A DNA stretch of 64,000 bases from assembly GCA_963281255.1 (NCBI GenBank), contig OY725506.1, positions 2,585,001-2,649,000 of the forward strand. The letters run 5' to 3'. A program made the position numbers and the translations under genes. Source of the stretch: Aphrocallistes beatrix. Its lineage: Eukaryota > Porifera > Hexactinellida > Sceptrulophora > Aphrocallistidae. Under the pieces are notes generated by a model. That model did not search any database. It was not told the origin of the DNA and saw only the letters and a list, made by a program, of their open reading frames with translations. Shown piece after piece: positions 22,725-64,000 of the stretch (within the stretch, counting starts at the first letter, position 1; each line of letters starts with the position of its first letter).

Positions 22725-24732
22725 TTACTTCTTCTTTTTCTTCATAAAGAAGCAACATTCTGCTAGATTATTTCTATGTATCAGCACTACACTCACCATC
22801 AGATATGTTGGCATCAAGAACAATATGAAGATACTAATAATTACTCCATAATAAATAGGAAGAGTACAACTGAACTTAATAGGACAATATTTCCCTTTGT
22901 ATCCCGTTTAAATCGTAATCGTATTTTTTCCAATCAAATCCACTTTTAGACAAAACTGGTATCGCAGATAAACTAGCGAGATTGTATATCTTTCTTTTAA
23001 TAATGGCAGTCGTAGGAGAGGATGAAACAGTACCATATAATCTGATCATACTGGAAACTGATATAGATTCATTAAATAATTGACATTGCTCCGTAGTAGA
23101 ACACTCTCCAATCAATTTAAATCCATTATATGATATCACACAATCAAAATTTATTGAACCAAGTCCCAAAGCAATCTGCTCTTCATTATAATCAAAACAA
23201 GGCACATCAGTTTGTATACTAGAATAGACGCTTAGCGACGAAATACCTTTTAATCCTGTGATTGTAGTATTAGAGGGCGCCCATAGGGTAGTATATGGGA
23301 TATAACTGTAATTGTAAATATTGGAGGCAATATTTTGGTGTAGATCGATAGTTGAAATGCTATTATTAAGATATGCATAATAAGTCTGATTACAGCTGTA
23401 ATGTTGTGGATTATATACTTCAGTTGTTACTTCAGAACATGTTTCCATTGCTTTAGACAAATTAGTTCGATTCATCTCATAAAACTCTCCACTATCCACA
23501 TATAGTATTGAACTCCAGCCAGTTATACCAAGTGTTGTAATAAATCCTACCATTATGAATGTTATAAAGGCACTGACGATAGAATAATAACTTAGGAGAA
23601 TCTTCTGCATTTTAGCTCCAGTTAAAGTTTGGGGATTCGATAATGGGACACTTTTTGTAGGATATTCTTCCATGTTAAATTCTTCACTAAAATGACTATA
23701 ACCACTAAATCGAACTTTCTTTGACATACTGAACAGAAATTTCCAAAGAATTAAGAAAAAAATTGTGTAGAGTATGCTTGTCAAAAAGTAGATTAATTCC
23801 ATTATAAATATTGAAGATAAAAAATAATTGGGATCGATGTAGAACCGATGAGAGAAAGAATAATGCCCGTAAAAATCTATGGAACTGAAAAAAACTTCTG
23901 TAATTACAAATACTACTTCAATTGAAGAGGGAATGAGGACTAAAGCTGCAAGTATAAAGTTTCCCCAAGAGAGACATTTGAATAAGACGGTTGCACGATA
24001 AATACTCTCTACCCTCTCATGTCCCATAGCATTCCTCAAGTCCTGATTAGATAGAATGCCATTAATCATTCTCTTAACAGTATCATGACCTTCCTTCGCA
24101 AACCGGAATATTAGAATTACTCGTAGCAAGTATATACATTCAAATAGGAACATGCTAACACCTCCTGCTAGCACAACATAACTAAGTTTAGTTATTTCAA
24201 AAAAAATTAACGAAATAAGTAATCCTGATTCGATCAAAAATACCCAGAAAAACCTTAGAATAGCGAGTAGAAATAATTTATTGAAATTAAACTTTTTTTC
24301 TTTGAAAAAGTGCATAACTTGCAGCATACATAACAGTCCAAATGATATGATAGCATCTTGAAACGAGAACCAAAAGTTAAGCACTAAATTCAGACTGATA
24401 GGTTCGACATAGAACTCAAACAATGGTTTGATGAGGTAGAAAGCTTTGATAAGATTGAATACATTGAACAGAATCATTACGAAGAGCAGACAGAACATGA
24501 TACGATAATGCTCGTAGTAAGGTATGTGTTCTTCTGGATCTGATGCATTCTTAATTGTTTCTCGATATTTTAAAGATTGAACTAATAACTGACCTGACAG
24601 TCTGAGTATGAACGGCAATACAGCCAATGTGATCAGTATCTCGAGAATAAAAACAACAAAAAGAACATACTTCCAACTCTCAAGTGTAACTAATAGAGGA
24701 TAGTTTGTGAAAAGATAAAAGTAAGTCAACAT
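22725..24732 (-). pseudogene. Array copy A (subfamily 1): nine-segment membrane protein, one frameshift
   Basis: ATG at 24732, same start as F (MLTYFYLFTNYPLL). The frame is open for 618 codons, then breaks near 22905. In the next frame the expected end follows, with YCPIKFSC, the last membrane segment PTYLMVSVVLIHR and a lysine tail, stopping at 22725. So a single indel separates it from a full-length protein of about 668 residues. The eight-cysteine domain is otherwise complete. It is the copy nearest to the single-copy SAM-like gene. The 3' flank (22360-22724) resembles the 3' flanks of F and G and is itself present twice. The lesion may be real, an allele or a read error; I cannot tell. 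Confidence 0.8.
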
Positions 24733-24826
24733 TAGTAAGAATACATAAATTGTCGATTAGATTTTGAATTAAGCTGGCACATGTACATATATACATACAT
24801 ATATAACCATATACTCCTAGCAGTAA

Positions 24827-24856
24827 GCATATCAAGCTAAGTGTAATTGATATATC
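24827..24856 (-). promoter_or_regulatory. Subfamily 1 upstream motif, copy A
   Basis: Reading toward the gene, the stretch contains TCAATTACACTTAGCTTGAT then ATGC, 95-125 bases upstream of the start of A. Nearly the same block stands at the same distance before F (47091-47118) and G (47817-47848). It is a candidate promoter or 5' UTR element; function is inference. Confidence 0.5.
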
Positions 24857-25536
24857 AAAGATAGTGAGTTCTATTAGAGCACATTTTTATTCAATGAATG
24901 ACTGATCTAAATAATTAATCTTTTGAACTTAGATATTACATGTTAAATAAAGAATTTATAAAGTCAACCCGAGTTGAATCGACAAGATAGATTTGAAGAT
25001 AGTAGAGAAATAGTTCTTTAGGGCACATCTTATTTTTTGCCAACTTTTTACATCTTGTAACGTATTTAATTCACCTATTTTCGCTGTTTTCAAGTCATGT
25101 CTAAGCAACCGTATTTCCCTGAAAAATTTCCCGGATTCGCTTACTTTAATCGTAGACATGAAATTGCCGAGATTAACTCTCCGACCATTACTCGTACCCA
25201 CGCATCTTATACATAGTTTCGTATCTATGAAATCACTGCATACCTATGAGCATACGTGTACTTTAGTATTTCATTGAATAATTATGCCTTCGAATTAGTA
25301 TTGAGTAACTATACAAATTTAAATGCAATGGTAGCGGTTCTTATCCTGTACTGGGGTACATGTGCCCTTAAAAGCCTCAAAGGATACTTGATTCAGCCCA
25401 GCGAGTATCTAGAAACCTTTTTTTCTCTGGTAGTTGGTTGAATTTGAAGTCAGATATTCGGTTTGAATGGAGGGGCGATGGGGTGCTATGGTCCCCGCAA
25501 CAAAGGACATTAGAAGAGCCAGACTTGGAGAATTTA

Positions 25537-26356: not shown

Positions 26357-28324
26357 TTAATGTCTGTGAATTAGTATTACACTCACCATGAGGTACACTG
26401 GTATTGAGATTAACGTGAACAGACCAACTGTTATTCCAATAGCATAATGCAGAGTGCAGCTGAACTTGATAGGACAAGCAGTATCAGATGTATATAAGTC
26501 CCCTAAATCTCTTGAAGTTTCATTGTTTATTAGAATATCATACTTTTGCCAAGCAAATTCACTCTCTGAATTCCAAAAGTCCATAACTGGTCTTACGTTA
26601 GATAAATTTGAAAGATTGTATGTCTGTTTTAGAAGAAAATAAGTAGGAGAACGAACTTCAAAAGGGGAATGAACAGATATATCTATCAAGCTCGATTTAT
26701 TAAGTATTGTTTCATGAAATGATTGACATTGGTTACTGTTAGAACAATTTGCAATAAATTTGGAGTCATTGTACTTCGGTATTACACAATCAAAAATAAC
26801 AAATCTTTCTTCTAATGCAAAAGTCTTTTCAAATGGAATCAGGCAAGGCACTTCCATTTCAACTATAAAAGAAATATTTAGTGAACTTATATTGTTTAGT
26901 CCCATAATTGTAGTGTTAGGAGGGACCCACAAAATATTTTCACCTTTAGATGAATATTTTGAACGGATTGAATACTGTTGGTACAGAGGAGTTGATGTGT
27001 CGCCAATGGTTGCAAAATATGTAGAATTACAATCAAGGGAAAAATAAGGAGTAGAATATATTTCAGCAGTAACTTCAGAGCATGATTCCATTGCTTTATA
27101 TATATTGGTATACTTTAACTTATAATAATCTCCTGAATGTACGAATAACAGTGAACTCCAACCGTTTACACCAAGTGGTGTGGTAAATCCTACCATTATG
27201 ACTGTAATGCATGATATGACAATAGAATAATATCGAAGAAGAATTTTCTGACTTTTCATTCCTGTAAACGTGATTGGGTTCAAAATTGGGATAGTTTCAG
27301 TTATCTGGGAAATTCGACTTTCACTGAAATGACTATATCCTCTAAATCTGACTTTTTTTGATCTATCAAAGAGGAATTTCCAAAGAATCAGGAAAAATAT
27401 CGCATATAAAATACTTGCAAAAAAGAAAATAAGTTCATTAAATAGAACAGATGAGAAAAAAATAGCTGGATCTATTTTTTCTGAGGGTAAATATACTTGC
27501 AGAAAGTAGTAAATAAATTCAACCAACGGAGGAATACAAAAGAGTATTGCAAGTATGAAATTTCCCCAGGAAAGACATCTGAATATTACCGTCGCTCGAT
27601 AGATATTTTCTACTCTTTCATGACCCATAGCATTACTTAAATCATTATTTGATAAGATCCCAGTGATTAACTTATTGACAAGATCATTACCTTCTTTCGC
27701 GAAACGAAATGTTAAAACAAATCGCAGGAGATATCCTGGAAGAATAAATATGATCAAAAACTCATCATTTTGAGTCTGACAAATTTCTAATAAAATTAAA
27801 TGTATTAATAAACCAGATTCAACCAATAAGATCCAAAAAAATCGTACGACTGGCAAAGTGAAATAACTTCCAAGATTTACTTTTTGCTTTTGGAAAAAAT
27901 AAATGATTTGAAGCATAACCAATAAACCAAATGAGATGATGGCATCTTGAAATGAACACCAAAAGTTAATAACCAAATTTAGACTGATGGGCTCGACATA
28001 GTAAGTAAATAATGATTTAATAAGGTAGAAGGCTTTGATGAGGTTCAAAACTGAAGTCATTAACATTACGAAGAGCAGACAGAACATAATACGATAATGT
28101 TCATAGTAAGGTCTATGTTCTTCTGGATCTGATGCATTCTTAATTGTTTCATAAGACTTTAGAGTTTGAATGAATAACTGACCTGAGAGTCTGATTAAGA
28201 ACGGGAGAACTACCAATGTGATTAGAATCTCAATAATATATACAGTCAATAAACTGTATTTGAACCCATCTCCCATTGTAACCAATAGGGAATTAGTTGT
28301 TAGAAGATAAAAGTAAGACAACAT
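26357..28324 (-). CDS. Array copy B (subfamily 2): intact nine-segment membrane protein
   Basis: 655 residues from the ATG at 28324; the in-frame TTG before it is not a likely start. Membrane segments 1-8 fill the first ~400 residues, the eight-cysteine domain follows, and segment 9 (VPVYLMVSVILIHRH) ends the protein. Cytoplasmic-loop signatures are present: DPEEHRPYYEHYRIMF after segment 1, a GHERVENIYRATV block before segment 6 (here AMGHERVE) and RGYSHF before segment 8. Cysteine spacing in the outer domain is the family pattern (ESC, LDC, VPC, FDC, NC-x5-C, ACPIKFSC). Several N-x-S/T sites lie there (NTTI, NISS, NCSN, NLSN). No known family recognised. Subfamily 2 also includes C, E, H, K and L. 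Intact and probably functional; role unknown. Confidence 0.85.
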   Translation of the reverse strand: MLSYFYLLTTNSLLVTMGDGFKYSLLTVYIIEILITLVVLPFLIRLSGQLFIQTLKSYETIKNASDPEEHRPYYEHYRIMFCLLFVMLMTSVLNLIKAFYLIKSLFTYYVEPISLNLVINFWCSFQDAIISFGLLVMLQIIYFFQKQKVNLGSYFTLPVVRFFWILLVESGLLIHLILLEICQTQNDEFLIIFILPGYLLRFVLTFRFAKEGNDLVNKLITGILSNNDLSNAMGHERVENIYRATVIFRCLSWGNFILAILFCIPPLVEFIYYFLQVYLPSEKIDPAIFFSSVLFNELIFFFASILYAIFFLILWKFLFDRSKKVRFRGYSHFSESRISQITETIPILNPITFTGMKSQKILLRYYSIVISCITVIMVGFTTPLGVNGWSSLLFVHSGDYYKLKYTNIYKAMESCSEVTAEIYSTPYFSLDCNSTYFATIGDTSTPLYQQYSIRSKYSSKGENILWVPPNTTIMGLNNISSLNISFIVEMEVPCLIPFEKTFALEERFVIFDCVIPKYNDSKFIANCSNSNQCQSFHETILNKSSLIDISVHSPFEVRSPTYFLLKQTYNLSNLSNVRPVMDFWNSESEFAWQKYDILINNETSRDLGDLYTSDTACPIKFSCTLHYAIGITVGLFTLISIPVYLMVSVILIHRH

Positions 28325-30034
28325 CAAAAAATACTCTCTTCAATATTCTGCATAGTATTCTAAAACATCAGGACACATTTATATAGTCTCTAATAAACAT
28401 AATCCATGATATATGATATTGTAATCTGAGATACACCTTGATTCGATCGAGATAATAACATGTACTTTAGTATAATAATTTGTTAAGTTGTTTTCAGTGG
28501 TATCCAATATCAGAGTCACTCATTTAAATGATTTTCATAGACAAAACAACATATATTGTCACTAGCGGATCCAGAAATCTCAGAAAGCGGGTAGCGAGCG
28601 ACCTTATTTGGGGATCTGAGGGCTTAGCCCCACAGAAGAAAATGGCTTCCATATATGCTCAGATCATAAGCGTAGCAAGGACGTTTTATAGGGAGCTATA
28701 TCAACCAGCTCGGGGGTCTGGGTAGCGTTGTTAGCCACCTAACAGGATCTTTATTTGTTTCTTTTGTTTACAATAGATACTTAAATTAAACAGATTACAA
28801 AAATAGGTTAGAGATTGGCTTCGGGAACGCTGAATTTAACCAAAAATCAAATCGGATTTGACTTAGAACTGAAGTAGGAAAATGACCTAACATTGAACTT
28901 AAACCTAAAGAAATTTGGGAGATAGGAATATGACCTAAAACGGGTGAAGTAGGAAAATAACCCTAAAATTCGAGGGAGAGAGATAGTGGGCATTTTAGGT
29001 TTGAAATAGTGTTCAATTGAGTGTGAAAGTGGCATTTTTATTCGTAAGAGGGGATACTGTGTGGCATTTTAGGTCTTATTCCTACTTAGTACGTTATAGG
29101 TCTTTTCCTACTTCTCTAATTTCTTTAGGTTAAATTCCTACTTTTAGGTATTTCATTGAAGTATAGAACAGGGCTGTAGACTCAAGATGAGTATTGGTAG
29201 GGCCTTTGAGGCTAGGACCAAGGGATTATCCAAGAGTGCGAGATACTCCTTTATGCATATGGTTTTAAACACAAAGTATTAAAGAGCGTGAAAATTGAGA
29301 ATATTATAACACAATTTATCCTATGTTATAATGTTATTTATAAATGAGGCGTATTTATGAGTTTGGGAGTAAGATCATATCACTGGAGGGATGTATATTA
29401 ACCTGGTTTGGATTCAGGATTAGTGGACCATTTTGGATAAAAAGCATTATGGTTAAAAGAATAATTCTCTTCAACAAATTATTGGTAAGGTCATGACTCT
29501 GCAAACCTTACCGGAGCCTAGGTCTATGTAGAATTAAGAGATAAAGAAGGGGGCAAACTACTGAACATATTTCTGATGGTAGTATAACATCCAGCTGGAT
29601 ATCTAGAGAACCCGGGAAGTTGACAGTATGTCTCCTAATTAGGCCCAGACTACTCAAATTTGGTCGAAACAAAAGCTTTATTTCAAATATGTAGTTTCAT
29701 TAAATAATGGGAGTACACGTATAGTGATAGAAACTAGAAAAAGTATAATAATCAGTAATATTTTTGGGTTCATCCCAATATTACCCTACATGACTAAATT
29801 ACAAAACAATGAATCCGAATAGCAAGAAAATAATACCGGGGAAATAGTGTCAAAAGGTTTAGATTATAGAGAACAGTAATTAAACATAGATATAAAGAAT
29901 AATTTACAAATGTTAGAATTTTGCATGAAGATCACTATATTAAGCTATTCTGGGAGATTAATGATTATACAATTTTCAACACACTCCATTACAAGTTGTT
30001 ATAGCAAATTTCAAAGCAGTATCAATGCTGCTGG
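28325..30034. other. Intergenic region between C and B
   Basis: 28362-28560 resembles the upstream DNA of H and K. 28840-29150 is a repeat of inverted AAGTAGGAAAATGACCT and AGGTCTTTTCCTACTT blocks, probably a MITE. 29160-30034 is the 3' flank of C and is duplicated at 59600-59959 (after K) and 62624-63479 (after L). No supported gene. Confidence 0.6.
28339..28361 (-). promoter_or_regulatory. Subfamily 2 start-proximal motif, copy B
   Basis: Read toward the gene: GAATACTATGCAGAATATTG. The same motif, GAATACTGTGCAGAATATTG or one base away, stands 15-40 bases before the start of C (32025-32048), E (40279-40301), H (53950-53973) and K (61959-61981). Candidate initiator or 5' leader element. Confidence 0.55.
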
Positions 30035-32010: not shown

Positions 32011-32362
32011 TAAGAAATACTCTATTCAATATTCTGCACAGTATTCTAGCACAATACGAGTAGAACACATTTATATTATATAGTAGCTAATGAGCATAAT
32101 GAATATTATATTGTAATATGAGATCCTCCTTGAATACTTAGTCTGTTGGAAAATATCTCAAATGGTTTATAAGTCAGAATAAACCTAGCTATCAAGCTCA
32201 AAAATTTGTTTTCGCAAATCATTTGAAACTATCTCCACCGAATGCCTCACTTTTAACAATCTTTCCCAAATGCTCTCTCTATTCTTATTCATTCCAATTA
32301 TCCGAACCATCCGAACCTATTCCGTTTTAGATAATTTCCAACTTCAATTTCAGATCTTACTC

Positions 32363-35219: not shown

Positions 35220-37064
35220 TTAATGTCTGTGAATCAGTATTACACTCACCATGAGGTATACTGGTACCGAGATTAACGTGAATAGAGCAATTGTTATTCC
35301 AATTGCACAATGAAGAGTGCAAGTGAACATAATCGAGCAAGCATGATCATTGCGGAAATCCCTAAAGTTTCATTGTTTATTAGAATACCATTCTCTTTCC
35401 AAACAAATTCATCGCTGGAATTCCCAAAGTCCACAACTGGTGTCACGTCAGATAAGTTTGAAGGTTGATCATTGTTAGAACAACTTGCTATAAATTCGGA
35501 GAGATCATATCCAGAAATTATACAGTCGAAAATAACAGATCCTCCTTCGAATGCTATTCTTTTTCATCAAGAGTCAAGTACATCAGTTTTAACTATAAAA
35601 GATATATTCAGTGAATAAATATTTTTCAGGTCTGTTATCGGGGTGTTGGGAGGAACCCACAATATGTTTTCTTTAGAATCATTTGAAAGTCGAAATGAAT
35701 AATTTTGATAGAGAAAAGTTGCAGACTTCCCAATAGTTGCAAAATACGTAGAATTACAAACAGGGGCAGGATAAGGAGAATATACCTCAGTATTGACTTT
35801 TGAGCAGTGTTCCATTGCTCTACATAGGTATCTTCCAACTTATAATAATATCCTGGATGTACAAACAGTACTGAACTCCAACCGATTACACCGAGTGGTG
35901 TGATAAATCCTACCATTATGATTGTGATACATGATATGACAATAGAATAATAACGAATTAAAAGTATTTCTGCATTTTCTTGAAAGAAAAGTTCATGGGA
36001 GTCAATATTGGTGTTGATTCATTGTTATGAATGTTCATATTGAAAGACTCGCTAAAATGACTGTAACCTCCAACCCGAATAGTTCTTGATCGATTATACA
36101 AAACCTTCCAAAGAATTATGAAAAATGTCAAGTAGAGTAGACTGGAAAAAAGGAAAAGTAGCTCATTGATCAAAACGAAAGAAAGGAATGTCTTTACGAA
36201 ACAATCATTACTACCATACTTAATAAAAAAAGAAGATATTCCTTCAATCCGGAGTGGAATGACAAACAACACTGAAAGTATGAAGTTACCCCAAGAGAGA
36301 CATCTGAATAGAACGCTTGCTCGATAGATATTTTCCACTCTTTCATGTCCCATAGCATCCCTTAAATTCGTATCTTCAAGAATCCGATTAACTAGCCTTT
36401 TCACTATATCGTTTCCCCCTTTCGCAAAACGAAATATTAAAACAAGTCTCAATAAGTATATAAATTCAATGACGAATAAGATAGAAAAGACAAATGTCTT
36501 AAAAACAATATCTGATTACTCTTTTTCCTTTACAATCAGCGTAGCAATCAATCCAGATTCTGACAAAAATACCAAAAAAATCTTAATATTCCCAGAAAGA
36601 TGTAGAAACTGATTTTATCTCTTTTTTCATTAAGAAAGTATATAATCTGTACCATGGATATCAGTCCAAATGATATGATAGCATCCTGAAATGATAACCA
36701 AAAGTTAAGCACTAAATTCAGACTGATAGGTTCGACATAGAACACAAACAATGGTTTGATGAGGTAGAAAGCTTTAATAATATTGAATACATTGAACAGA
36801 ATCATTACGAAGAGCAGACAGAACATGATACGATAATGCTCGTAGTAAGGTATGTGTTCTTCTGGATCTGATGCATTCTTAATTGTTTGGCGATATTTTA
36901 AAGTTTGAATCAATTAACTGACCTGACAGTCTGAGTATGAACGGTAATACAGCCAATGAGATCAGTATCTCAATGATAAATAGAAAGAAAAAACTATACC
37001 TAAATTCATCACCGATTCTTGTCAATAGAGAATTGTCTGTGAAAAGATGGAAATAGGCAATCAT
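35220..37064 (-). pseudogene. Array copy D: chimeric, multiply broken membrane-protein gene
   Basis: The most likely start is the ATG at 37064. At least four frame breaks are seen (near 36905, 36545, 35960 and 35600) plus a deletion in the outer domain removing the third cysteine region. The first half matches subfamily 3 (copy I), including the loop NIHNNESTPILTPMNFSFKK. The second half (TYFATIGKSATFLYQNYSF, WVPPNTPIT and the end near 35220) matches subfamily 2. It is therefore a recombinant or gene-conversion product that later decayed. Confidence 0.8.
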
Positions 37065-38013: not shown

Positions 38014-40264
38014 TTAATGTCTGTGGATTAGTATTACACTCACCATGAGGTATACTGGTACGGATATTAACGTGAATAGAGAAATTGTTATTCCATAAGC
38101 ATAATGAAGAGTGCAACTGAACTTGATAGGACAAGAATCAAAAGAACGTAAATCTCTTTTAGCTTCATTGCTCATTAATACATCATACGTTTTCCAATCA
38201 AATATACCATCAGAATTCCCAATGTCCATAACTGGTTTCACATTAGATAAGTTTGAAAGAAATAGTAGAAAAGGGAACGGAATGAAAAAGATCAAAAGTT
38301 ATATTTATCATGCTTGATTTAGTAACTATTTTTTCATTAAATGATTGACATTGGTTGCTGTTAGAACAATTTGCTATATATTTGATGTCGGTGTCTTCAG
38401 GTATTACACAGTCAAAAATAACAGATCTCCCATCAAATGCAATACTCCGTTCAGTAGTAGTCATGCAAGGTACATCATTTTCGACTATAAGAGAAATATT
38501 TAGTGAGTTAATATTTTGTATCCCTGTAATGGTGGTGTTAGGAGGGACCCATACGATGTTTCTTTCCTGATAATACTGTAAAGAATTATTTTGATACACA
38601 TAATAATCAAGTTGAAAAGGATATTTTTGAGCTGTTGAATTCCCAATAGTTGCAAAGTATATAGAATCACAACTAGAGAAAGGATAGGAAGGATAGGAAG
38701 GAGAGGAAGGAGAGGAAGGAGAGGAAGGAGAGGAAGGAGAGGAAGGAGAGGAAGGAGAGGAAGGAGAGGAAGGAGAGGAAGGAGAGGAAGGAGAGGAAGG
38801 AGAGGAAGGAGAGGAAGGAGAGGAAGGAGAGGAAGGAGAGGAAGGAGAGGAAGGAGAGGAAGGAGAGGAAGGAGAGGAAGGAGAGGAAGGAGAGTAAGGA
38901 GAGGAAGGAGCGGAAGGAGAGTAAAAATAGTAAGGAGAGTAAGAAGGAGGAGAATATACTTCAGCAGTAACTTCAGAGCATGATTCCATTGCTTTATATA
39001 TATTGGTATGCTTCAGTTTATAATAATCTCCTGGATGTACGAATAACAGTGAACTCCAACCGTTTATAGCAAGTTGTGTGATAAATCCCAACATTATGAC
39101 TGCAATGCATGCTGTTACAATGGAGTAATATTGAAGAAGAATTTTCTGACTTTTCTTCCATGTAAACGTAATTGGAGTTGATATCGGGATAGTTTCAGTG
39201 GTAGGGGATATCCTACTTTCATCAAAATGGCTATAGCCGCTAAGTTTAACTTTTTATGACCTAGCAAAAAGGAATTTCCAAAGAATCAGAAAAAATATCG
39301 TGTATAAAATGCTCGTGAAAAAGAAAATAAGTTCATTAAATAGAACAGAAGAGAAATATACCCAGGTATATTCGTTGGTTGTGGTTGAAAATATATAAAA
39401 ATAGATAAATTCAACCAAAGGAGGAGTACAAAAGGACAACGCAAGTATGAAGTTTCCCCATGAAAGACATCTGAATAGGACCGTCGCTCGATAAATATTT
39501 TCAACTCTTTCATGTCCCATAGCATTCCTCAAATTATTATCTGATAATATTCCATCGATTAACTTCTTAACAATATCATTACCTTCTTTCGCAAAACGGA
39601 ATATTAGCAAAAATCGCATTATATATATTAGAATCGTAAAAAGAGATAATAATAACTCTTTATAATTAACAACCTGGGATACAAATAGCTGATATAAAAT
39701 ACTATTATAACTATCTTTAAAACTTTCTGTTGATATAATATAAATGAGTAAACCAGATTCAATCAATATAACCCAGACAAATCGCAAGATTGGCAAAGTG
39801 AAATAATATCCAAAATTATTTCTTTTCTCCTGGAAGAAATACATGACTTGAAGCATGGCCAATAAACCAAATGATATGATAGCATCTTGAAATGAAAACC
39901 AAAAGTTAAGCACTAAATTCAGACTGATGGGTTCGACATAATACACAAACAATGGTTTGATAAGATAGAAGGATTTGATGAGATTAAAAACAGAAGTCAT
40001 TAACATTACGAAGAGCAGACAGAACATGATACGATAATGATCATAGTAAGGTCTATGTTCTTTTGGATCTGATGCACTCTTAATTGTTTGATAGGACTTT
40101 AGAGTTTGAATGAATAACTGACCTGAGAGTCTGATTAAGAACGGCAGAACTACCAATGTGATTAGAATCTCAATAATATATAAAGTCAAGAAACTGTATT
40201 TGAATCCATCTCCCATTTTAATTAGTAGGGAATTGTCTGTGAAAAGGATAAAATAGGACAACAT
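38014..40264 (-). pseudogene. Array copy E (subfamily 2): PSS-repeat in outer domain, broken
   Basis: ATG at 40264. The frame runs through segments 1-7, then the lysine codon after LFARS is TAA (39254-39256). It continues in the same frame through segment 8 and the outer domain to about 38260, where a small deletion shifts the frame (the LLKQTYN region is lost) before the last 80 residues. Between cysteines 1 and 2 it carries more than 20 Pro-Ser-Ser triplets (38690-38935) not found in any other copy. Lesions: one nonsense, one deletion/frameshift. Confidence 0.85.
38690..38935 (-). repeat. 9-base minisatellite coding for Pro-Ser-Ser repeats
   Basis: The unit GGAGAGGAA (coding strand TTCCTCTCC) is repeated in nearly perfect tandem more than 20 times with decayed edges (TATCC, GAGTAAGGA). 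It keeps frame because the unit is three codons long. It lies within the outer domain of copy E. Confidence 0.95.
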
Positions 40265-40669
40265 CAAGAAATACTCGATTCAATATTCAGCACAGTATTC
40301 TAGCACAATGGAACACTATATATTAGTAACAATTGAGCATATTCTAGATTATAGAATATTATATTATTATAGTGTAATATGAGATACTCCTTGAATAATT
40401 TAGTCTTTTGGAAAAATACTCCAAAGAGGTTATGACTTATAAGTCTGAATAAACTTAGCTATGAGCCTCAAAGGTTTGTTTTCGCAAATCATTTTAAACT
40501 ATCACCACCCAAAAGCCTCACTTCTAGCACTCTTTCCCAAACACTCTATATCCATTCTTATTCATTCCTATTCTCCGAACTATCCACTCCTTTTCCATTT
40601 TATGCATTTTTATAACTTTGACTTCAGATCTTCCTTTTATCTCCGAATCAACTCATTTAATGGTGTTGG

Positions 40670-42836: not shown

Positions 42837-43078
42837 GGGCATGCCTAATTTACGGGACGAGATGGCATCCCGTCTCGTATATTAGGCACTTAACTCGTCT
42901 CGTCCCGTAAATTAGGCATCTTAACTCGTCCCGTCCAGTAAATTAGGCATCTTAACTCGTTCCGTCCCGTAAATTAGGCATCTTAACTCGTTCCGTCCCG
43001 TAAATTAGGCATCTTGACTCGTTCAGTCCCGTAAATTAGGCATCTTAACTCGTCCCATCCCTTAAATTAGGCATGCCC
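42837..43078. mobile_element. Fold-back 'GGGCATGCCTAATTTACGGG' element with empty site
   Basis: The ends GGGCATGCCTAATTTACGGG and AATTAGGCATGCCC are inverted. Inside are about six units around AATTAGGCATCTTAACTCGT. The paralogous site near 25100-25125 reads AACCGTATTTCCC uninterrupted, while here CCGTACTTC and CGTATTTC flank the element, an 8-9-base target duplication. Confidence 0.85.
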
Positions 43079-47928: not shown

Positions 47929-49950
47929 ATGTTGACTTACTTTTATCTTTTCACAAACTATCCACTATTAGTCACACTTGATAGTTTCAAGGATGCTATT
48001 CTTGTCATTTTTATTCTCGAAATACTGATCACATTGGCTGTATTACCGTTCATACTCGGACTGTCAGGTCAGTTATTAGTTCAAACTCTAAAATATCGAG
48101 AAACAATTAAGGATGCATCAGATCCAGAAGAACACATACCTTACTACGAGCATTATCGTATCATGTTCTGTCTGCTCTTCGTTATGATTCTGTTCAATGT
48201 GTTCAATCTCATCAAAGCTTTCTACCTCATCAAACCATTGTTTGTGTTCTATGTCGAACCTATCAGTCTGAATTTAGTGCTCAACTTTTGGTTTTCGTTT
48301 CAAGATGCTATCATATCGTTTGGACTGTTATGCATGCTGCAAGTTATGCACTTTTTCAAAGAGAAAAATTTTAATTTTAAAAAATTATTTCTACTCGCTA
48401 TTCTAAGGTTTTCCTGGATATTTTTGTTCGAATCGGGATTACTTATTTCTTTAATTTTATTTGAAATATTTATATCTAATTACATTGTGCTAATAGGAGG
48501 TGTTAGTATGTTCCTATTTGAATGTATATACTTGCTACGACTAATTCTAGTATTTCGGTTTGCAAAGGAAGGTCACGATACTGTGAAGATAATGATTAAT
48601 GACATTCTTTCTGATCAGGACTTGAGGAATGCTATGGGACATGAAAGAGTAGAGAATATTTATCGTGCAACCATTTTATTCAAATGTCTCTCTTGGGGAA
48701 ACTTTGTACTTGCAGCTTTAGTTTTCGTTCCTTCTTCAATTGAAGTAGTGTATGTAAGTTTCAAAACTTTCCTTTTTCTTTTTAATACCTATTATCCATC
48801 TCTATACAATTTCAATCCAAATTATCTTTTATCTTCAATATTTATAATGGAATTGATCTACTGTTTGACAAGCATACTTTACACAATGTTTTTCTTAATT
48901 CTTTGGAAATTTCTGTTCAACGAGTCAAGAAATGTTCATTTTAGTGGTTATAGTCATTACAATAAAGAATTTAACATGATGGATTACACTAAAGAAAGTA
49001 CCCCATTATTAAAACCCAAAACTTTTACTGGAGCTAAAATGCAGAAGATTCTCCTAAGTTATTATTCTATCGTCAGTGCCTTTATTACAATCTTAATGGT
49101 AGGATTTATTACACCACTTGGTGTAACTGGCTGGAGTTCAATACTATTTGTGTATAGTGGGGACTTTTATGAGATGAATCGAACCAATTTGTCTAAAGCA
49201 ATGGAAACATGTTCTAAAGTAACAGTTGAAATAGATTATCCACATTATTACTATGAAAATTGTGATCAAACTTATTTTGCATTTCTTGATAATAGCACCT
49301 CAACTATCCCTCTACTCGAAAATCTTACCTTCGGCCGCATTTTTAACAATTCCTCTTCTTTTTCAGATACCACTCTATGAGTTCCCTCTAATACTATTAT
49401 CACAGGATTAAAAGAAATTTCGTCACTAAACGTTAGCTCACTAATGCAAACTTATGTACCTTGTTCGGATTATTACGAAGAATATTTGTCTTTGCAATAT
49501 GGTTCAGTAAATTTTGATTGTTCGGTACCATCGACGAATACTGGCAAATTGATCGGAAACTGTTCTACCACAGGACAATGTCAATTATTTAATATTTCAA
49601 TTCCATTTTCCAGTATGATTAGTTTAAAACGTAGAGTTTCAAATTTCCCTTCAACTGTTATTGTTAGAAGGCATATATACAATCTGTCTAGTTTATCTGT
49701 GACACCAGTTCAAGCAACTCAACGTGAATTTCTTTGGAGAAAATACGATTTAATACAAAATAATGGAACAAAATTATATTACAATCGTGAATATTGTCCC
49801 ATGAAGTTCAGTTGTACTCTTCCTATTTATTATGGTCTAATTATAAGTATCCTGACATTGATCTTGACACCGACATATCTGATGGTGAGTGTTGTGCTGA
49901 TACATAGAAATAATCTAACAGAATTTTGCTATTTTATGAAGAAGAAGTAA
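47929..49950 (+). pseudogene. Array copy G (subfamily 1): full length except one TGA codon
   Basis: The only array member on the + strand. One frame runs from ATG 47929 to 49950 (674 codons) with a single internal stop, TGA at 49378-49380, where family members have tryptophan (LW before V-x-S-NTTITGL). TGG to TGA is one transition. All nine segments, the loop signatures and the eight cysteines are present, and the end (YLMVSVVLIHRNNLTEFCYFMKKK-like, lysine tail) matches F. Probably a recent null allele; stop readthrough is less likely. Translation up to the stop would give 483 residues ending inside the outer domain. Confidence 0.85.
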
Positions 49951-53935: not shown

Positions 53936-55326
53936 TAGGGAATATACTATTCAATATTCTGCACAGTATTCTAGTACATTTATATGATGACTAATGAGCA
54001 TAATCCAGAATAAGTGTAATATGAGATACACAATGCATGGATCGGGATTATTCTACTTACTTCAATGTAATAATGTATTAAGTTGTTTTAAATGATTTCT
54101 TATTTAAGAGTCACTTAGTTTGAGATTTATAGACAAAACAATATCCATATGTGTGGATTAATAACGTTATAGATTGGTGATCGCGTTCCCTATTGCTCCA
54201 TAAATGGTTAGAATAACTGTAGATCGATATCTCAGCATCTAAGGTTTTAAATTTATGGGAAGCTTGCTCCCCAGGTCCTCTTATTTTCTCACTTTGTTTG
54301 GTCAGGACCCCTTCCAAAATCCTGATTATGTGTCTGCAATAACCGCTGTCCGCTGTCTCCATGGTCAGGAAGTATGCCAGGCCCATATGCTGGGGGTTCG
54401 TTGGGTGCGTACACACTTCCATTGGGTTAGGCATATTGAATAATCCACACGAACGAAGGACACTCTCTGGGTGTCGGTGGACAAACGCCATTCAAAACTG
54501 TTACAGACTGTCCTTCCACAGTAAAGACACAAAGGAAGTATTGCTAGGTATAAATTATCATAATCGGGATCTTAACGGCCTAACTATAACTTATATAAGT
54601 ATTGTGCGATGCGCTACAGCTATAGAGACCTCCTGGAGTGGTCGCAACGTCATCACATCATTTGAGCAAGCCTTCTCGTATAGCGGATTAAATGCCACAA
54701 ACAAATTAACCAAGACCAATTTTGGTTTTGGGGAACCACATTAGGCCCGGCAAAAATTGGTCACCCTCGGAACATTTTTTCGTAACAGATCCAACTCACA
54801 AGAAAAGCACCCCTCTCCAGTTAACGATCATCCTACGGGCTTGCATACGCAACATTTAATTAACTCAGCAATGACAAGGGGTGCATTCTATGTATTGTTT
54901 TGACCCTGCATTCCTAAGGTTTCACCGCACAAAATGACTTAATCGGGAATGAGTTAGCAAAATCCATAGTATATTGATGGGATATTATTAAATCTTTGCA
55001 TTTATTTGATTTTTGGATATTTGTTCGTGTCTACAATGCAACATAAATAATGCTGATTTAAGAACTCTATGACTAGACGGATACTTAAAGTTATCATTAG
55101 AATGGTCCAAAAAGATGCCATAAAAGATGCAATAACTTTCCTATAGAGGATCTAAATCAACCTTGAATATTAACTTGTTCAAATCTACCAATAGTTCATA
55201 AATCTAATTTTACAAAACAATACACTACCAAAATGAGATGATTCAAATAATCAAGGAATTCATTAGAAAATGCTACAAAGGGTTACAAATAAGAATTATA
55301 AATTTCAATTTATCTTTCTTTGCAAA
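53936..55326. other. Upstream region of H, shared with K
   Basis: 53941-54260 aligns with 61950-62285. 54240-54530 aligns in pieces with 62270-62610, including GGTCAGGAAGTATGCCAGG, TTGGGTGCGTAC and CTCTCTGGGTGTCGG followed by GGACAAACGCC. These blocks are more GC-rich than the rest and may be part of an old repeat. From 54760 on I see no feature except the 3' flank of I. Confidence 0.6.
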
Positions 55327-57226: not shown

Positions 57227-57405
57227 TATAGGATATCACTGTGAACTGTAAACACTAAGGATGTCATCTGAAAGTAAACCAGCGTATTATCTTGCCAGAA
57301 ATAGTGCAACTGAATTGAATACGGCTAAATTCTAATTCTGACGTGGATATCACTGTATCATTATTTTTTTAAAATTCATACTGTTTCCAGTCAAATCCGA
57401 AAAAG

Positions 57406-57625
57406 AGTGCAGTCTTAGAGTTGAGCTCTACCAGAGTTCAGTTTTAGAGTTGAGCTCTACCAGAGTTCAGTTTTAGAGTTGAGCTCTACCAGAGTTCAGT
57501 TTTAGAGTTGAGCTCTACCAGAGTTCAGTTTTAGAGTTGAGCTCTACCAGAGTTCAGTTTTAGAGTTGAGCTCTACCAGAGTTCAGTTTTAGAGTTGAGC
57601 TCTAACAGAGTTCAGTTTTAGAGTC
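57406..57625. repeat. 29-base minisatellite, about seven units
   Basis: The unit GAGTTCAGTTTTAGAGTTGA plus GCTCTACCA is repeated about seven times with almost no divergence; the last unit has AACAGAG. GAGCTC palindromes occur in every unit. Near-identity implies recent expansion. It lies between copy I and the reverse-transcriptase remnant. Confidence 0.95.
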
Positions 57626-57659
57626 CCTAGTATGGCAATCTAGAGAATTGATTCTTCGC

Positions 57660-59061
57660 CCTAACAACCGCCTTCTACAGAATCTTAACTTCGAAACTCC
57701 TTTTCACTAAGGGTGACAGAGGTCCCCCCTCCTGCCTCCCTCCCCCTATACACCTTCTTTTCCCACTCTTGCCACAACTGCTTCCCACTCCAGAAGAAAA
57801 TTCCCTCTTCTACCATAACCAAACCTCCCGATTCCATAGTGACCACAAGGTCATAGAACCACCCCAAGACATCCCCAGCAACCAAGCCTACAATCTCCCT
57901 CCCTCCAGTTTTCACCCCTTCTACACCCCCAATAAACCTCGCCATAACCCTCTAAGCCCTTATGCAATACGGCACAGCCTTCCAGCTTCCCCAGGAACCT
58001 TCCCCAACGCCGCTCCTTACACCCTTCTCACACCTCCTAAGGCTGACAACCAACACCCCTCCCGTTACCCGCTTCAACATCCCTACCTCCCAAGTGCATA
58101 CTCATCGCACATTCAAACGCCTCCTTAGCAGATTCCGAAAGCAAATAAAAGAGAGCCAATATAGTCTCATCACAGCCGACAAAGGTTCCGACCTGGTTAT
58201 TATCCAAAATACTACCCTAACCGAATTATATCACCGAAATATCCAAACAAAAGCCACCCTCATCCATCCAGGAGATTATCTTACAATCTCCAACGACCTA
58301 TTTGAAGCCCTTATCCAAATTGACCCCTTCACCAAAACCAATGCGACAGACGATCGCCCACCAACTTTCTGCTTTAAAGTCAAAACCCATAAACCCGCGT
58401 TCCTAACTTCTACCACCCCCACCCGGAAATCTACACTTACAACCTTACCGCCTCCACCCTTATCCCTATCGTACGACCGATCCTCGACCATAAGAGATCT
58501 ATCTCGTGCCTTTGTGTCGACTACTTGCGACCCCTGCTCACTCCCATTATCCAATCCACGTCGTACATTTACAAAACTATAGACAACCTCTGCCAAAATG
58601 GCCCCCATCCTCACTGTACACAGGTGATATCGAGCGATTTTACCCCTCTACTCCATACAACCTAATTACAGACGCATAGTATAAGGTGAATGCGCCTTAC
58701 TAAGCTCCTTAATTACAACTTTATAACCGAGAGCCAAAGCATCTATCATCTAGGCCAGTGGTCCGCAACCTGTGGTCCGCGGACCCCTTAGTGGTCCACA
58801 GAAGATATCAGGGGGTCCACATGATTCGAAATTTTGTATTACGGTTAATAGGAGGGGGTCCACAGAATATAGATAAATTGCTTTAGGGGGTCCACAGTCT
58901 AAAAAAGGTTGAAAACCGCTGATCTAGGCGACTTGGGCATCTCAATAGGCCTCACCCTTGCCCCTGAGCTCACCCGCATGGCCACCGCTTTTCTACTCAA
59001 AGACTACCTTCAACCCCCAAGCGAAACCCTGACCCTCTATTTCGACGACATAACAACCAAC
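57660..59061 (+). pseudogene. Degraded reverse transcriptase, possibly Penelope-like
   Basis: A C-rich stretch, quite unlike its AT-rich surroundings, encodes RT pieces in three frames: ITADKGSDLVIIQN (58165-58210), FCFKVKTHKP (58368-58400), IPIVRPILDHKRS (58450-58490), GDIERFYPSTPYNLITDA (motif A, about 58624-58678), and after an interruption TLYFDDI (motif C, about 59031-59052). The order and the YxDD-type box are diagnostic of an RT. The 'GDIERFYPSTP' and 'TLYFDDI' forms look nearer to Penelope-like RTs than to LINE or LTR types, but that is a judgement by eye. Several frameshifts and a hAT insertion at 58756-58921 make it inactive. Sequence is cut off at 59061 by array-gene DNA. Confidence 0.7.
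58756..58921 (+). repeat. hAT (Charlie-type) MITE in the RT remnant, perfect 8-bp duplication
   Basis: Starts CAGTGGTCCGCAACCTGTGG, ends GTTGAAAACCGCTG. Both flanks read ATCTAGGC (58748-58755 and 58922-58929). Confidence 0.92.
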
Positions 59062-59200
59062 TGAGGTCATTAACATTACGAAGAGCAGACAGAACATGAT
59101 ACGATAATGTTCATAGTAAGGTCTATGTTCGGCTGGATCTGATGCATTCTTAATTGTTTCATAGGACTTTAGACTTTGAATGAATAACTGACCTGAGAGG
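59062..59200 (-). pseudogene. Array copy J: 46-codon fragment of the membrane-protein family
   Basis: Encodes LSGQLFIQSLKSYETIKNAS, then DPAEHRPYYEHYRIMFCLLF up to LMTS, that is, the end of segment 1, the first cytoplasmic loop and the start of segment 2. It is nearly identical in DNA to copies B and K but nothing of the gene lies on either side. It directly abuts the RT remnant on the left. Confidence 0.85.
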
Positions 59201-59959
59201 GTTTTTTTGACACATCTTGAATATATGCATTCCAATAATTTGGTACTATTTGAGCGATATCCGATATTACAGTAGCTCAGTTTAAAATCATTTTGAAGGA
59301 TTATTTATTAATCCAGACGTGTGGATAAATATTTTAGGATTGGGGATTGTGTTCCTTGTTTCGACTGAAATAGACTATCAGATTCAAGGATTTGAATTAT
59401 ATTCAATAAGGTAAATACATCGAAAAGTATCATTATGAATTATGAGAGCAAATAAAACTTGATACGATAGTGTTCATAATAGAGCGTATACTCTCCAGTC
59501 TGATAGATTCATTATTGATTCAGGATATTTCAATGACTGAATTAATTACTGACCCGAGAGTCTCAGCAGAAATAGCAAAACGATCAAGATAATTAATATT
59601 CCAAGGGATCATTTAAGAGTGCAAGATTCTCCTTTATGCATATACTTTTAAACCCAAAGTATTCAAAAATTGAACTGAGAATATTATAAAACCCAATTTA
59701 CCCAAGGTTATAATGTTATTTGCAAATGTCCCGTAAATTAGGCATGCCTGGAGTGAAAAATAGTATACAGCAGTTTAGATTATAGAAAATAGTCATAACA
59801 TAAAGTAGATAGAGAGATAAAATACAAATATTAGAAATTTGCATGAAAATCACTATGCACAGCTATTCAGGGAGATTTGTAATTATACAATTTTCAAGTT
59901 CAACACACTATGATTACTAGTCGTTACAGTAAATTTCAAAGGAGTATCAACGTTATTAG
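59201..59959. other. Intergenic region with an old family relic
   Basis: 59425-59601 is a degenerate relic (listed separately). 59600-59740 matches 29220-29340 and 62680-62790, and 59750-59959 is the 3' flank of K. No gene. Confidence 0.6.
59425..59601 (-). pseudogene. Ancient relic of the membrane-protein family
   Basis: On the minus strand one reads ILIILIVLLFLLRLSGQ, stop, LIQSLKYPESIMNLSD, and in a shifted frame LYYEHYRIKFYLLS. This follows the family order (segment 1, first loop, YYEHYRIMF) but with stops, a frameshift and much substitution. It is far more diverged than any other copy, so the family has been at this locus for a long time. Confidence 0.75.
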
Positions 59960-61944
59960 TTAATGTCTGTGAATTAGTATCACACTCGACATGAGGTATA
60001 CTGGCACAGAGAATATCGTGAATATAGCAACAATTATTCCAATATAAGGAGGAAGCACGCACTTAAACTTTATAACACAAGTGCCACCGTAGTATATCGA
60101 TGTTTGATTGTTTTGCAGTAAATCATGCTTTTGCCAATCAAAGTCGTTTTCTGATTTCCAAATATTCATCACTGGTTCCATGTTAGATAAACTTGAGAGA
60201 TTGTATATCTGTCTTATAAGATTAGATGATGGAGAGTAGTCAGAAGAATCAATAGTTATATTTATCATCATTGAAGGAGAAATCGTTTCATGAAATGATT
60301 GACATTGATCAGTATTAGAACAATTTGCTATAAAATTGGTATAGTTGTAGTCAGGTATTACACAATCAAAAATAACAAATCTTCCTTCTAAGGCAATACT
60401 CTGTTCAAAATCAGTCATGCAAGGTACATCAGTTTGAATAATGGAAGAAATATTGAGGGAATGAATATCATTTGAAAGTCCTGTGATCGTGGTGTTGGGA
60501 GGAATCCATAAGACATTGCCTTGCGGAGAATAATCTGAAGGATAAATTGGATAGTTTTGGTACAGAAAGGTTGGTGAGTCCCCAATAGTTGCAAAGTACG
60601 CAAAATCACAATCAAAAACATTAGAAGGATATACTTCAGCGTTAATCTTAGAACATGATTCCATTGCTTTATATAGATTAGTATAGTTCAACTCATAATA
60701 ATCGCTTGGATGCACGAACAATATTGAACTCCAACCGGTTATAGCAAGTGGTGTGATAAATCCTACCATTATGACTGTAATGCATGATATGACAATAGAA
60801 TAATATCGAAGAAGAATTTTCTGAATTTTCATTCCAGAGAACGTAATTGGATTCAATAGTGGGACAGTTTCACGAGTTTGTAAGTTTCCAATATTATTGA
60901 AATGACTATATCCTGTAAATTTCACTTTTTTTGATTTATCAAAAAGGAATTTCCAAAGAATCAGGAAAAATATTGCATATAAAATGCTCGCAAAGAAGAA
61001 AATAAGTTCATTGAATAGAACCGAAGAGAAATAAACTTTGGAATATTCTCCTGTTGGGTACGAAAAAATGTAATAATAAATTGATTCTACTAAGGAAGGG
61101 ACACTAAAAAGCATTGCAAGTATGAAGTTTCCCCAGGAAAGACTTCTAAATAGAACCGTCGATCGATAAATATTTTCAACTCTTTCATGTCTCATAGCAT
61201 TCCTTAAATTAGTATCTGATAATATTCCATCGACTTCTTAACAATATCATTACCTTCTTTCACAAAACGGAAAATCAGCAAAAATCGCATTATATATATT
61301 AGAAAAGAAAACATAAAGAATACAATCTCTTTATAAGCAAGAATATAGTACAAAATCGGAGAAATTGTATATGGTCTTATAAACCATTCTGTGCGTTTGG
61401 GATTTTCCAATAATATTAAAAAAAATAGTAGACCAGATTCAATAAATAAAACCCAGAAAAATCGCACGATTAGCAAAGTGAAATAACGTCCAAAATTCTT
61501 CTTTTTCTCCTGAAAGAAATAAATGATTTGAAGCATAGCTAATAAACCAAATGATATGATTGCATCTTGAAATGAAAACCAAAAGTTAAGCACTAAATTC
61601 AGACTGATGGGTTCGACATAATACAAAAATAATGGTTTGATAAGATAAAAGGCTTTGATGAGATTACAAACTGAAGTCATTAACATTACGAAGAGCAGAC
61701 AGAACATGATACGATAATGTTCATAGTAAGGTCTATGTTCTTCTGGATCTGATGCATTCTTAATTGTTTCATAAGACTTTAGAGTTTGAATGAATAACTG
61801 ACCTGAGAGTCTGATTAAGAACGGTAGAACTACCAATGTGATTAGAATCTCAATAATAAATCCAGTTAAGAAACTGTATTTGAACCCATCTCCCATTGTA
61901 ACCAATAGGGAATTAGTTGTGAGTAGAAGAAAGTAGGATAACAT
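59960..61944 (-). pseudogene. Array copy K (subfamily 2): single 4-base deletion
   Basis: ATG at 61944. The frame is open through segment 5 to the loop NDIVKK, where paralogues read AAGAAGTTAATCGATGG and K has AAGAAGTCGATGG: four bases are missing at about 61231-61233. The frame resumes 20 bases on with NLRNAM, and the remaining 411 codons are open with segments 6-9 and the eight cysteines; AMGHERVE has become AMRHERVE. It is a recent pseudogene or a polymorphic null. Confidence 0.87.
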
Positions 61945-63479
61945 CAGGGAATATTATATTCAATATTTTGCACAGTATTCTAGCACAATAGAACACATTT
62001 ATATATCGTCTAATGAGCATAATCCAGAATAATTGTAATATGAGATATACTATGTATGGATCGAGATGATTTTACGTACTTCAATACAATAATGTATCAA
62101 GTTGTTTTAAATGATCTCCTATCTAAGAGTAGCTTAATTTGCTTACAGACAAAACAATATCCATATGTGTAGACGAATAACATTATAGTTTACTGATCGC
62201 ATTCCCTATTCCTCCATAGGTTGTTAAAATAACTGTAGATCGATATCTCAGCGTCTAAGATTTTAAAATTTATGGGAAGCTTGCTCCATGTGCCCTCTTA
62301 TTTGCTCGCTCATGACATCTTCCAAATTCCTGGTTATGCCCTACGATAACGCTGGTCTTCTAATTCTAAGGTTGAACTTTTGTTGGCTCTCCAAAAATGT
62401 GTCTCTTCCCCAAAATATAATAGGTCTTCAAATTCTTTTAACCGCTGTATCCATGGTCAGGAAGTATGCCAGGTTCGTAGCCTGGGGGATGCGTTGGGTG
62501 CGTACGCAGGCCCACTGGAGCAAGGCTGCTGAATATCAGTTCGAAAGAGAGATACTCTCTGGGTGTCGGCGGACAAACGCCACTCAATATTGTTACAGAC
62601 TATTTCAATGGACCATAGAACAGGGGGTGTAGACTCATAATGAGTATTGGTAAGGCCTTCGGAGCTAGGACTAAGGGATCATCTAGAAGTGCGAGATGCT
62701 CCTCTATGCAAATGCTTTTAACCACAAAGTGTTCTAGAGTGTGAAAATTGAGAATAACAGAACCCAATTTACTCTATGTTATAATGTTATTTATGAATGG
62801 ACGTATTTATGAGTTTGAGAGTAAGAGCATATCACTGGAGGGATGTATAATATCCTGGTTAGGACACAGGATTAGTGGACTATTTTGGATAAATCCTATT
62901 ATGGGTAATAGAATAATAGTCCTCAACAAATTATTGGTAAGACCGTAACCCTACAAACCCTACCAGAGCTTAGGTCTATGTAGAATTGAGAGAGGAGGAG
63001 GGAGGCAAAACCACCGAACAGATTTCTGATGATGGTATAACATCCAGCTGGATGTCTGGGGGCCCTGGAAGTTGACAGTGTGTCTGCTATTTACGCTCAA
63101 ACTACTCAAATTTAGAGGAAATTAAAGCTTTATTTTTAAAATTAGTTTATCAATTCAAAATTGGAGTAAAAACTGTTAGAAACTAAAAAGAATAAAATGG
63201 TTTGTAAATCTTTTTGGCCCATCCAAATTTTAGCCTCTATGGCAAAATTACCAAACGTTGAATCCGAATAACAAGAAATTAATACCGGCAAAATAGTATC
63301 CAACAGTTTAGATTATAGAGAATAGTCATAACATAGATATAAAGATAAATTACAAATGTTAGAACTTTGAATCAAAATCACTATACAAAGCTATACTGGG
63401 AGACTTGTGTTTATACACATTTTCAAATTCAACCATTATTACAAGTTGTTATTGCAAATCTCAAAGCAGTATCAACTGG
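61945..63479. other. Upstream region of K and 3' flank of L
   Basis: 61950-62610 matches the H upstream region. 62624-63479 matches 29160-30034, the 3' flank of C. The change from one to the other at about 62615-62625 marks the boundary between adjacent duplication units. Open frames here (62288-62632, 62748-62948) are not supported. Confidence 0.65.
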
Positions 63480-64000
63480 TCAATGTCTATGAATGAGCAA
63501 GACACTCACTATGAGGTATACTGGCACAGAAAATATCGTGGATATAGCAACACTTATTCCAATATAAGGAGCAAGTGTGCAGGTAAACCTTATAACACAA
63601 GCATTATTGTAATATATCAATGTTTGATTATTTTGCACTAAATCATAGTTTCGCCATTCAAATTTGTTTTCTGATTTCCATGTGTTCATCACCGGTTCTA
63701 CATTAGGTAAACTTGAGAGATTGTATGTATGTCTTATTAGATTAGAAGTTGGAGAGTTATCAAAAGAATCAATTTTTATATTTATAAGGCTTGAATTTAG
63801 TATCGTTTCCCGAAATAATTGACATTGATCAGAATTGGAACAATTTGCTAAAGATTGGGTGTGATCGTATTCAGGTATTAAACGGTTAAAAATGACAGAT
63901 CTTCCTTTTAATGCAATACACTGTTCATCAAGAGTCGTGAGAGGCATATCAGTTTGAATAATGAGAGAAATCTTTAATGAATTAATATTATTTAATCCTG
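63480..64000 (-). CDS. Array copy L (subfamily 2), 3' part, runs off the window
   Basis: Open from the window edge to a stop at 63480: the second half of the outer domain and segment 9 (VPVYLIVSVLLIHRH-like). The cysteines that the family has in the VPC and FDC positions are both replaced (DMPL and IFNR), while NC-x5-C and the two before the last segment remain. Whether the rest of the gene is intact cannot be seen. Confidence 0.75.
   Translation of the reverse strand, partial: GLNNINSLKISLIIQTDMPLTTLDEQCIALKGRSVIFNRLIPEYDHTQSLANCSNSDQCQLFRETILNSSLINIKIDSFDNSPTSNLIRHTYNLSSLPNVEPVMNTWKSENKFEWRNYDLVQNNQTLIYYNNACVIRFTCTLAPYIGISVAISTIFSVPVYLIVSVLLIHRH

What the first reader, a model, noticed from the sequence alone, without database searches (positions are those of the whole stretch)
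22725..64000. Array of an unrecognised nine-segment membrane protein family with a variable eight-cysteine outer domain
Twelve recognisable copies plus a relic lie in about 41 kb, nearly all on one strand. Segments 1-8 and their loops are shared; the roughly 240-residue loop before the last segment varies but keeps eight cysteines and many N-glycosylation sites. I recognise no known family. The pattern (constant inner face, variable outer domain, mixed intact and broken copies) is what one expects of lineage-specific surface or chemosensory receptors, but function is not shown by sequence.
Basis: partly seen in the sequence, partly recalled or inferred. Interest (0 to 1): 0.9.

Follow-up and report, generated by a model that had tools for sequence, protein, structure and literature searches.

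The report
Glass-sponge receptors with nine membrane helices
A cluster of fast-duplicating genes in what is very probably a glass sponge encodes an undescribed family of cell-surface receptors: a seven-helix core shaped like a G-protein-coupled receptor, plus two extra helices holding a variable outer domain, probably used by a nerveless animal to sense chemicals, microbes or neighbours.

The parts
22743..24732 (-). copy A; main ORF stops after 618 aa, the last about 70 residues lie in another frame (22743-22946)
26357..28324 (-). copy B, intact single ORF, 655 aa
30035..32010 (-). copy C, broken (stop after 31 aa; two overlapping frames)
35223..37064 (-). relic, matched in six pieces
38017..40264 (-). 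copy D, broken; ectodomain carries a Ser-Ser-Pro microsatellite (38675-38943)
44915..46996 (-). copy E, intact single ORF, 693 aa (query of model 1)
45992..46996 (-). copy E residues 1-335: TM1-7, GPCR-like bundle
45791..45991 (-). copy E residues 336-402: cytoplasmic link and TM8
45044..45790 (-). copy E residues 403-651: beta-rich eight-cysteine glycosylatable ectodomain
44918..45043 (-). copy E residues 652-693: TM9 and short C-terminus
47929..49950 (+). copy F, the only + strand copy in the window; first stop after 483 aa
51986..53935 (-). copy G, intact single ORF, 649 aa
55441..57083 (-). copy H, broken, ectodomain truncated
59059..59563 (-). small fragments (59059-59199, 59404-59493, 59498-59563)
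59960..61944 (-). copy I, broken (first stop after 246 aa)
63480..64000 (-). copy J, intact, 644 aa; runs on to position 65414 of the extended sequence (C20:2,650,414)
28336..28360 (-). element just before the ATG of copy B, shared with other copies
32022..32046 (-). same element before copy C
40276..40300 (-). same element before copy D
53947..53971 (-). same element before copy G
61956..61980 (-). same element before copy I

Best explanation
These are cell-surface receptors of a glass sponge. TM1-7 form a GPCR-type bundle with the N-terminus outside. A cytoplasmic link leads to TM8, which carries an extracellular eight-cysteine, N-glycosylatable beta domain that TM9 anchors back in the membrane. 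The beta domain, with the variable outer loops between TM4-TM5 and TM6-TM7, most likely binds external ligands (dissolved chemicals, microbial products or cues of other sponges) and shifts the seven-helix bundle, whose conserved inner face engages the cell's G proteins or another shared effector. Duplication with own upstream DNA and loss of copies retune the repertoire per lineage. Shown by computation: family, copy number, clades, cysteines, purifying selection, shared upstream elements. Predicted: fold and topology. Inferred: ligand class, G-protein coupling, sensory or recognition role.
Against: No Foldseek match reaches E 0.001. For model 1 the first Foldseek rows are unrelated proteins at low probability and GPCRs reach at most 0.89. 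No class A sequence motif, no Pfam or PDB sequence link, and a profile comparison with the genome's own GPCRs found nothing, although it also failed to link the known classes to each other. No known ligand, expression or coupling. Pooled Ka/Ks never exceeds 0.60 in any 40-residue window (one single pair reaches 1.21 in the link plus TM8), so there is no clear sign of diversifying selection. Loop 2, predicted outside, lies in the least variable window (101-140, Ka 0.07), and loop 3, predicted inside, in a more variable one (126-165, 0.19). In the most divergent members most of the eight cysteines are not alignable: only the last pair is invariant in the 12-row alignment.
Confidence: 0.6

Rival explanations
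1. Allorecognition or adhesion proteins: the variable ectodomain binds partners on other cells or bacteria, and the seven-helix bundle is a membrane anchor or weak signaller rather than a ligand-gated GPCR.
For: Variable, glycosylatable, cysteine-rich ectodomain and tandem birth and death.
Against: Besides the ectodomain cysteines, most nearly invariant residues lie in TM1-3, TM5-7 and the loops between them, which a mere anchor would not need. Pooled Ka/Ks of the ectodomain is 0.45.
Confidence: 0.17
2. A ligand-gated ion channel or transporter with a superficially similar bundle, as insect odorant receptors are seven-helix channels.
For: No GPCR sequence motifs; helices of up to 50 residues that must run past the membrane.
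Against: The structure match is to GPCRs across 270 residues; the predicted N-out topology is opposite to the N-in topology of insect receptors (recalled). Pore features were not examined.
Confidence: 0.1
3. Proteins of internal membranes (endoplasmic reticulum, lysosome) with a luminal domain, working in trafficking or metabolite sensing.
For: N-glycosylation sites and cysteines fit any luminal space as well as the outside; no localisation or signal-peptide program was run.
Against: Lineage-specific expansion and a variable outer domain are typical of environment-facing proteins.
Confidence: 0.08
4. A decaying family without current function, kept by duplication alone.
For: 7 of the 20 cluster copies are broken, plus relics and fragments.
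Against: 13 of 20 are intact; pooled Ka/Ks is 0.28-0.45 by region; upstream elements are kept; both large clades keep the eight cysteines.
Confidence: 0.03

Closest known systems
Class A (rhodopsin-like) GPCRs, e.g. GPR55, NTSR1, endothelin receptor B
   Same: predicted arrangement and order of TM1-7, length of the bundle, N-out topology
   Different: no E/DRY, CWxP or NPxxY and no TM3-ECL2 cysteine pair in the clade consensus (motifs recalled), no Pfam 7tm_1 match, and two further helices with a C-terminal extracellular domain
Adhesion (class B2) and glutamate (class C) GPCRs
   Same: seven-helix receptors with large outer domains; numerous in this genome (134 and 36 matched segments)
   Different: their outer domain is N-terminal to the 7TM (recalled); here it follows it, between TM8 and TM9; no Pfam match
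GPR155/LYCHOS (17-helix GPCR fusion)
   Same: a GPCR-like bundle joined to extra helices (passage of PMC12716839)
   Different: there the extra part is a transporter-like domain before the 7TM, with a DEP domain at the C-terminus; no tethered ectodomain is mentioned
Insect odorant/gustatory receptors
   Same: large, lineage-specific seven-helix families (recalled)
   Different: N-in topology and ion channels (recalled); no Pfam match here

Membership tests
GPCR fold (superfamily level) | seven helices in the GPCR order and arrangement | tested here: met
GPCR fold (superfamily level) | N-terminus outside, inner loops positively charged | tested here: met
   charge bias of loops over 16 intact copies; a prediction, no experiment
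GPCR fold (superfamily level) | signals through G proteins or arrestins | not testable with these tools
   G-alpha genes exist in the genome, coupling unknown; arrestins were not searched
GPCR fold (superfamily level) | sequence-profile link to a known GPCR class | tested here: inconclusive
   hhalign with 11 class B2, 9 class C, 1 class A and 8 MFS sequences of this genome found none, but the known classes did not link to each other either
Class A (rhodopsin) GPCR | Pfam 7tm_1 match | tested here: not met
   0 of 72 family proteins at E up to 1;
Class A (rhodopsin) GPCR | E/DRY at the end of TM3 | tested here: not met
   consensus of both clades
Class A (rhodopsin) GPCR | NPxxY in TM7 | tested here: not met
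   clade 2 has LPSILY (P-x-x-x-Y), clade 1 lacks the proline
Class A (rhodopsin) GPCR | TM3-ECL2 disulfide | tested here: not met
   no ECL2 column reaches 70% Cys in either clade
Insect odorant/gustatory receptors | Pfam 7tm_6/7tm_7 match | tested here: not met
   no such match
Hexactinellida as the host | mitochondrial atp9 kept, all genes on one strand, AGR read as Ser | tested here: met
   contig C28, 17,996 bp (genes named by eye); one-strand order and atp9 also reported for O. minuta; the AGR rule for glass sponges, and which positions are serines, are recalled

The most novel reading that the evidence does not exclude
A previously undescribed GPCR-fold family with nine helices, in which a membrane-tethered C-terminal ectodomain senses ligands for the seven-helix bundle. 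It is confined to glass sponges and is a major environment-sensing receptor repertoire of a nerveless, syncytial animal that has kept only one recognisable rhodopsin-type receptor gene.
Probability: 0.4. Interest if true: 0.85.

Novelty: new variant of a known kind. Interest (0 to 1): 0.77.

Why it matters
How nerveless animals sense their surroundings is open. In this genome one search found a single 7tm_1 match, while this unnamed family has about 38 near-full-length loci (20 in the cluster, about 18 elsewhere by hand count) and the family is expanded reciprocally in other proteins. A GPCR bundle followed by a tethered ectodomain would be a new way of building a receptor. One published GPCR catalogue, of choanoflagellates and other relatives of animals, kept proteins with six to eight predicted helices (PMC12716839, passage seen), a filter that would probably discard this family.

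Tried and rejected
Considered and dropped: a known Pfam family. Only sub-threshold matches appear: of 72 members, 26 touch PspB (best E 0.0016), 5 OppC_N (0.0081) and 3 Peptidase_S26 (3.5e-4). I take these for chance matches of single helices or loops; for PspB the stretch is TM7. Solved relatives by sequence: none (protein E at E up to 1, 63-row profile at E up to 10). The AIG1 tandem cluster of the Aphrocallistes vastus paper (PMC10282587: outline, passages and sections 5 and 6 seen) is a different family. Profile comparison with GPCRs of the same genome was uninformative. The ectodomain was not folded alone; in the whole-model Foldseek search of model 1 its likely neighbours were weak (Epa1 adhesin E 0.19, FKBP43 N-terminal domain E 0.59), so its fold class is open. 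Retroposition as the main copying route: against it, copies share upstream DNA. Positive selection: not clearly seen. Literature: no description found in six searches, of which I saw the listings only, cut at 12-20 papers; subscription journals and preprints are mostly not held. The Wnt search found nothing, but its control was silent too.

Failed or partial: coordinates reversed; search term too short; scripts stopped on an error after printing part; the missing parts were done; a reference with stop codons, not checked beforehand; I then asked for other proteins; a report whose fields did not fit the schema.

Full report
WHERE THE WINDOW LIES. The window is C20:2,585,001-2,649,000 of an unnamed 100.5 Mb assembly in 28 contigs. 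Its mitochondrial contig (C28, 17,996 bp) has the protein genes that I could name by eye on one strand, keeps atp9, and reads TGA as Trp (11 TGA within the cox1 match). In seven gene frames AGA occurs 115 times and AGG never; AGA falls at positions that I recall as serines, and arginines come from CGN. atp9 and one-strand order are reported for the glass sponge Oopsacas minuta (PMC4520895, whole text read); that AGR means Ser in glass sponges is recalled. A Wnt search found nothing, as reported for O. minuta (PMC10280926, section 10 read), but its control was silent. I take the host for a glass sponge (about 0.85); the species is not known.

WHAT IS THERE. Between 22743 and the window end lie ten recognisable copies: A-J, all but F on the - strand. 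B, E and G are intact inside the window, J is intact but crosses its end, and A, C, D, F, H and I are broken. There is one relic at 35223-37064 and small fragments at 59059-59563. Beyond the window the array runs to C20:2,699,106: 20 copies, 13 intact as uninterrupted ORFs of 644-693 aa and 7 broken, 17 of 20 on one strand. Genome-wide, three different queries gave 65, 57 and 37 matched segments. From them I count by hand about 18 near-full-length loci outside the cluster (C17, C15, C13, C4, C1, C14, C8, C2, C10, C16 and eight on C3), plus further fragments; several of these are broken (for example C4) and the C16 one lacks most of the ectodomain in its ORF. The distant clades are truly related: hhalign of the 63-row profile against the C2 member gives probability 99.8 over 619 columns and against the C16 member 96.2 over 399 columns.

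NO KNOWN SEQUENCE FAMILY. Pfam shows nothing credible for 72 family proteins or for the divergent ones tested, and no PDB sequence matches the profile at E up to 10. Three searches of 5.8 billion proteins returned 72 distinct proteins, the window's own included, none with a Pfam domain or a name. Each search scored only the roughly 8,000 candidates sharing most words, so absence elsewhere is not proven. By near-identity (97% or more) to loci I hold, 27 belong to this genome; the other 45, at most 67% identical to those loci, come from one or more other genomes. One of them, P0046, is at most 55% identical to any match in this genome.

CONSTRAINT. Pooled over the 13 intact cluster copies, Ka/Ks is 0.28 for TM1-7, 0.37 for the link, 0.39 for TM8, 0.45 for the ectodomain and 0.44 for TM9; no 40-residue window exceeds 0.60. 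Pairs with dS under 1 give medians 0.35 (TM1-7, 42 of 78 pairs) and 0.50 (ectodomain, 43 of 78); single pairs reach 0.77 in the ectodomain and 1.21 in the short link plus TM8. Within TM1-7 the most variable stretches are TM4-loop 4-TM5 and TM6-loop 6-TM7 (Ka 0.43-0.58), on the outer side. The least variable are TM1-loop 1-TM2 (0.09-0.10), loop 2-TM3 (0.07) and TM5-loop 5-TM6 (0.10-0.13). Loops 1 and 5 are inner as expected; loop 2 is outer, an exception, and inner loop 3 is only intermediate (0.19). In 16 intact own copies, six of the eight ectodomain cysteine columns are complete and two are kept in 15 of 16. In the 63-row alignment, which does not include copy J, all rows with a residue there have them in both large clades (20-22 of 20-22 and 34-38 of 34-38; one cysteine is offset by five columns between the clades). 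In the 12-row alignment with the most divergent members only the last pair is invariant. NxS/T sites: 7-12 in the ectodomain, 0-3 in TM1-7, 0-2 in the link plus TM8.

COPYING AND HISTORY. Upstream DNA is shared. A 25-base element, read from the copies themselves, occurs five times in the window with up to 3 mismatches, each time just before a copy (B, C, D, G, I), none expected in 100 shuffles; a 15-base element occurs four times (expected 0.23). The copies of the other subfamily (A, E, F) have a different upstream sequence, shared among their own kind. A TATA-like word lies 51-74 bases before the ATG in 12 of 20 copies (no chance expectation computed). So I infer that copies were made as DNA, with their promoters. 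A tree of 69 proteins (28 own, 41 other; 9 of the 72 left out as shorter than 450 aa, 6 own loci added, one of which repeats P0032) shows two old clades present in both sets, each mainly expanded in a different one: clade 1 own 17, other 8; clade 2 own 8 rows (7 loci), other 33; the C8/C2/C10 members form a third (quick method, some long branches, the C1 member unsure). This is birth and death in parallel lineages, as in chemosensory and immune receptor families.

CONTEXT OF RECEPTORS. The same genome has one match to 7tm_1, 134 segments matching 7tm_2, 36 matching 7tm_3 (31 over the cut-off) and 54 matching G-alpha. The search works exon by exon, so genes split into short exons can be missed, and many of the G-alpha segments are partial or weak. 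O. minuta is reported to have eight G-alpha genes (PMC10280926, section 10). So the transducers a GPCR needs are present, and a rhodopsin-type repertoire is almost missing as far as this search can tell.

MECHANISM. Shown: the family, its copy numbers, its conserved core and cysteines, purifying selection, shared upstream DNA and reciprocal expansion. Predicted: GPCR-type bundle with N-out topology and a tethered outer domain. Inferred: that the outer domain and outer loops bind environmental ligands and move the bundle, and that G proteins answer. I give the fold about 0.85, a receptor that faces the environment about 0.65, and classical G-protein coupling about 0.5.

NOVELTY. To my knowledge no described GPCR family has a C-terminal TM8-ectodomain-TM9 extension. 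GPR155 has extra helices before its bundle (PMC12716839, passages seen). That study kept sequences with six to eight predicted helices, a filter that would probably miss this family. Six literature searches (listings seen) found no description. I file it as a new variant of a known kind.

Noticed in passing
window 32640-33485 (+): Mariner-type transposase ORF inside the array (Pfam Transposase_1 over its cut-off, weaker HTH_48).
   Followed up: no
window 12184-12405, 21932-22047, 42868-43074: A 31-base minisatellite with nearly the same unit recurs at several places and in both orientations.
   Followed up: no
window 38675-38943: A 9-base repeat of 30 copies encodes a Ser-Ser-Pro run inside the ectodomain of broken copy D.
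   Followed up: partly
window 57404-57624: A 29-base tandem repeat, 7.6 copies, 98% matches.
   Followed up: no
window 3050-3742 and 5356-8745 (+): PH-domain proteins; the longer has five matched PH stretches and repeated YDVP/YDHP-like motifs.
   Followed up: no
L015:3516-5000 (-): Beside the C8 family member lies a membrane ORF that looked TRP- or polycystin-like to me, but Pfam gives no match.
   Followed up: partly
L033 (C10:4157164-4158087): The only 7tm_1 match that the genome search gave at E 0.001, although 7tm_2 gives 134 segments.
   Followed up: partly
C4:4.9-5.9 Mb: Many 7tm_2 matches on C4 come as two part-matches a few hundred bases apart, as if one intron sat at a fixed place: perhaps a second large receptor expansion.
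   Followed up: no
L064:393-2003 (-): The most divergent family member found (C16), with the LKPGDY start of the ectodomain but an ORF that ends early, perhaps at an intron.
   Followed up: partly
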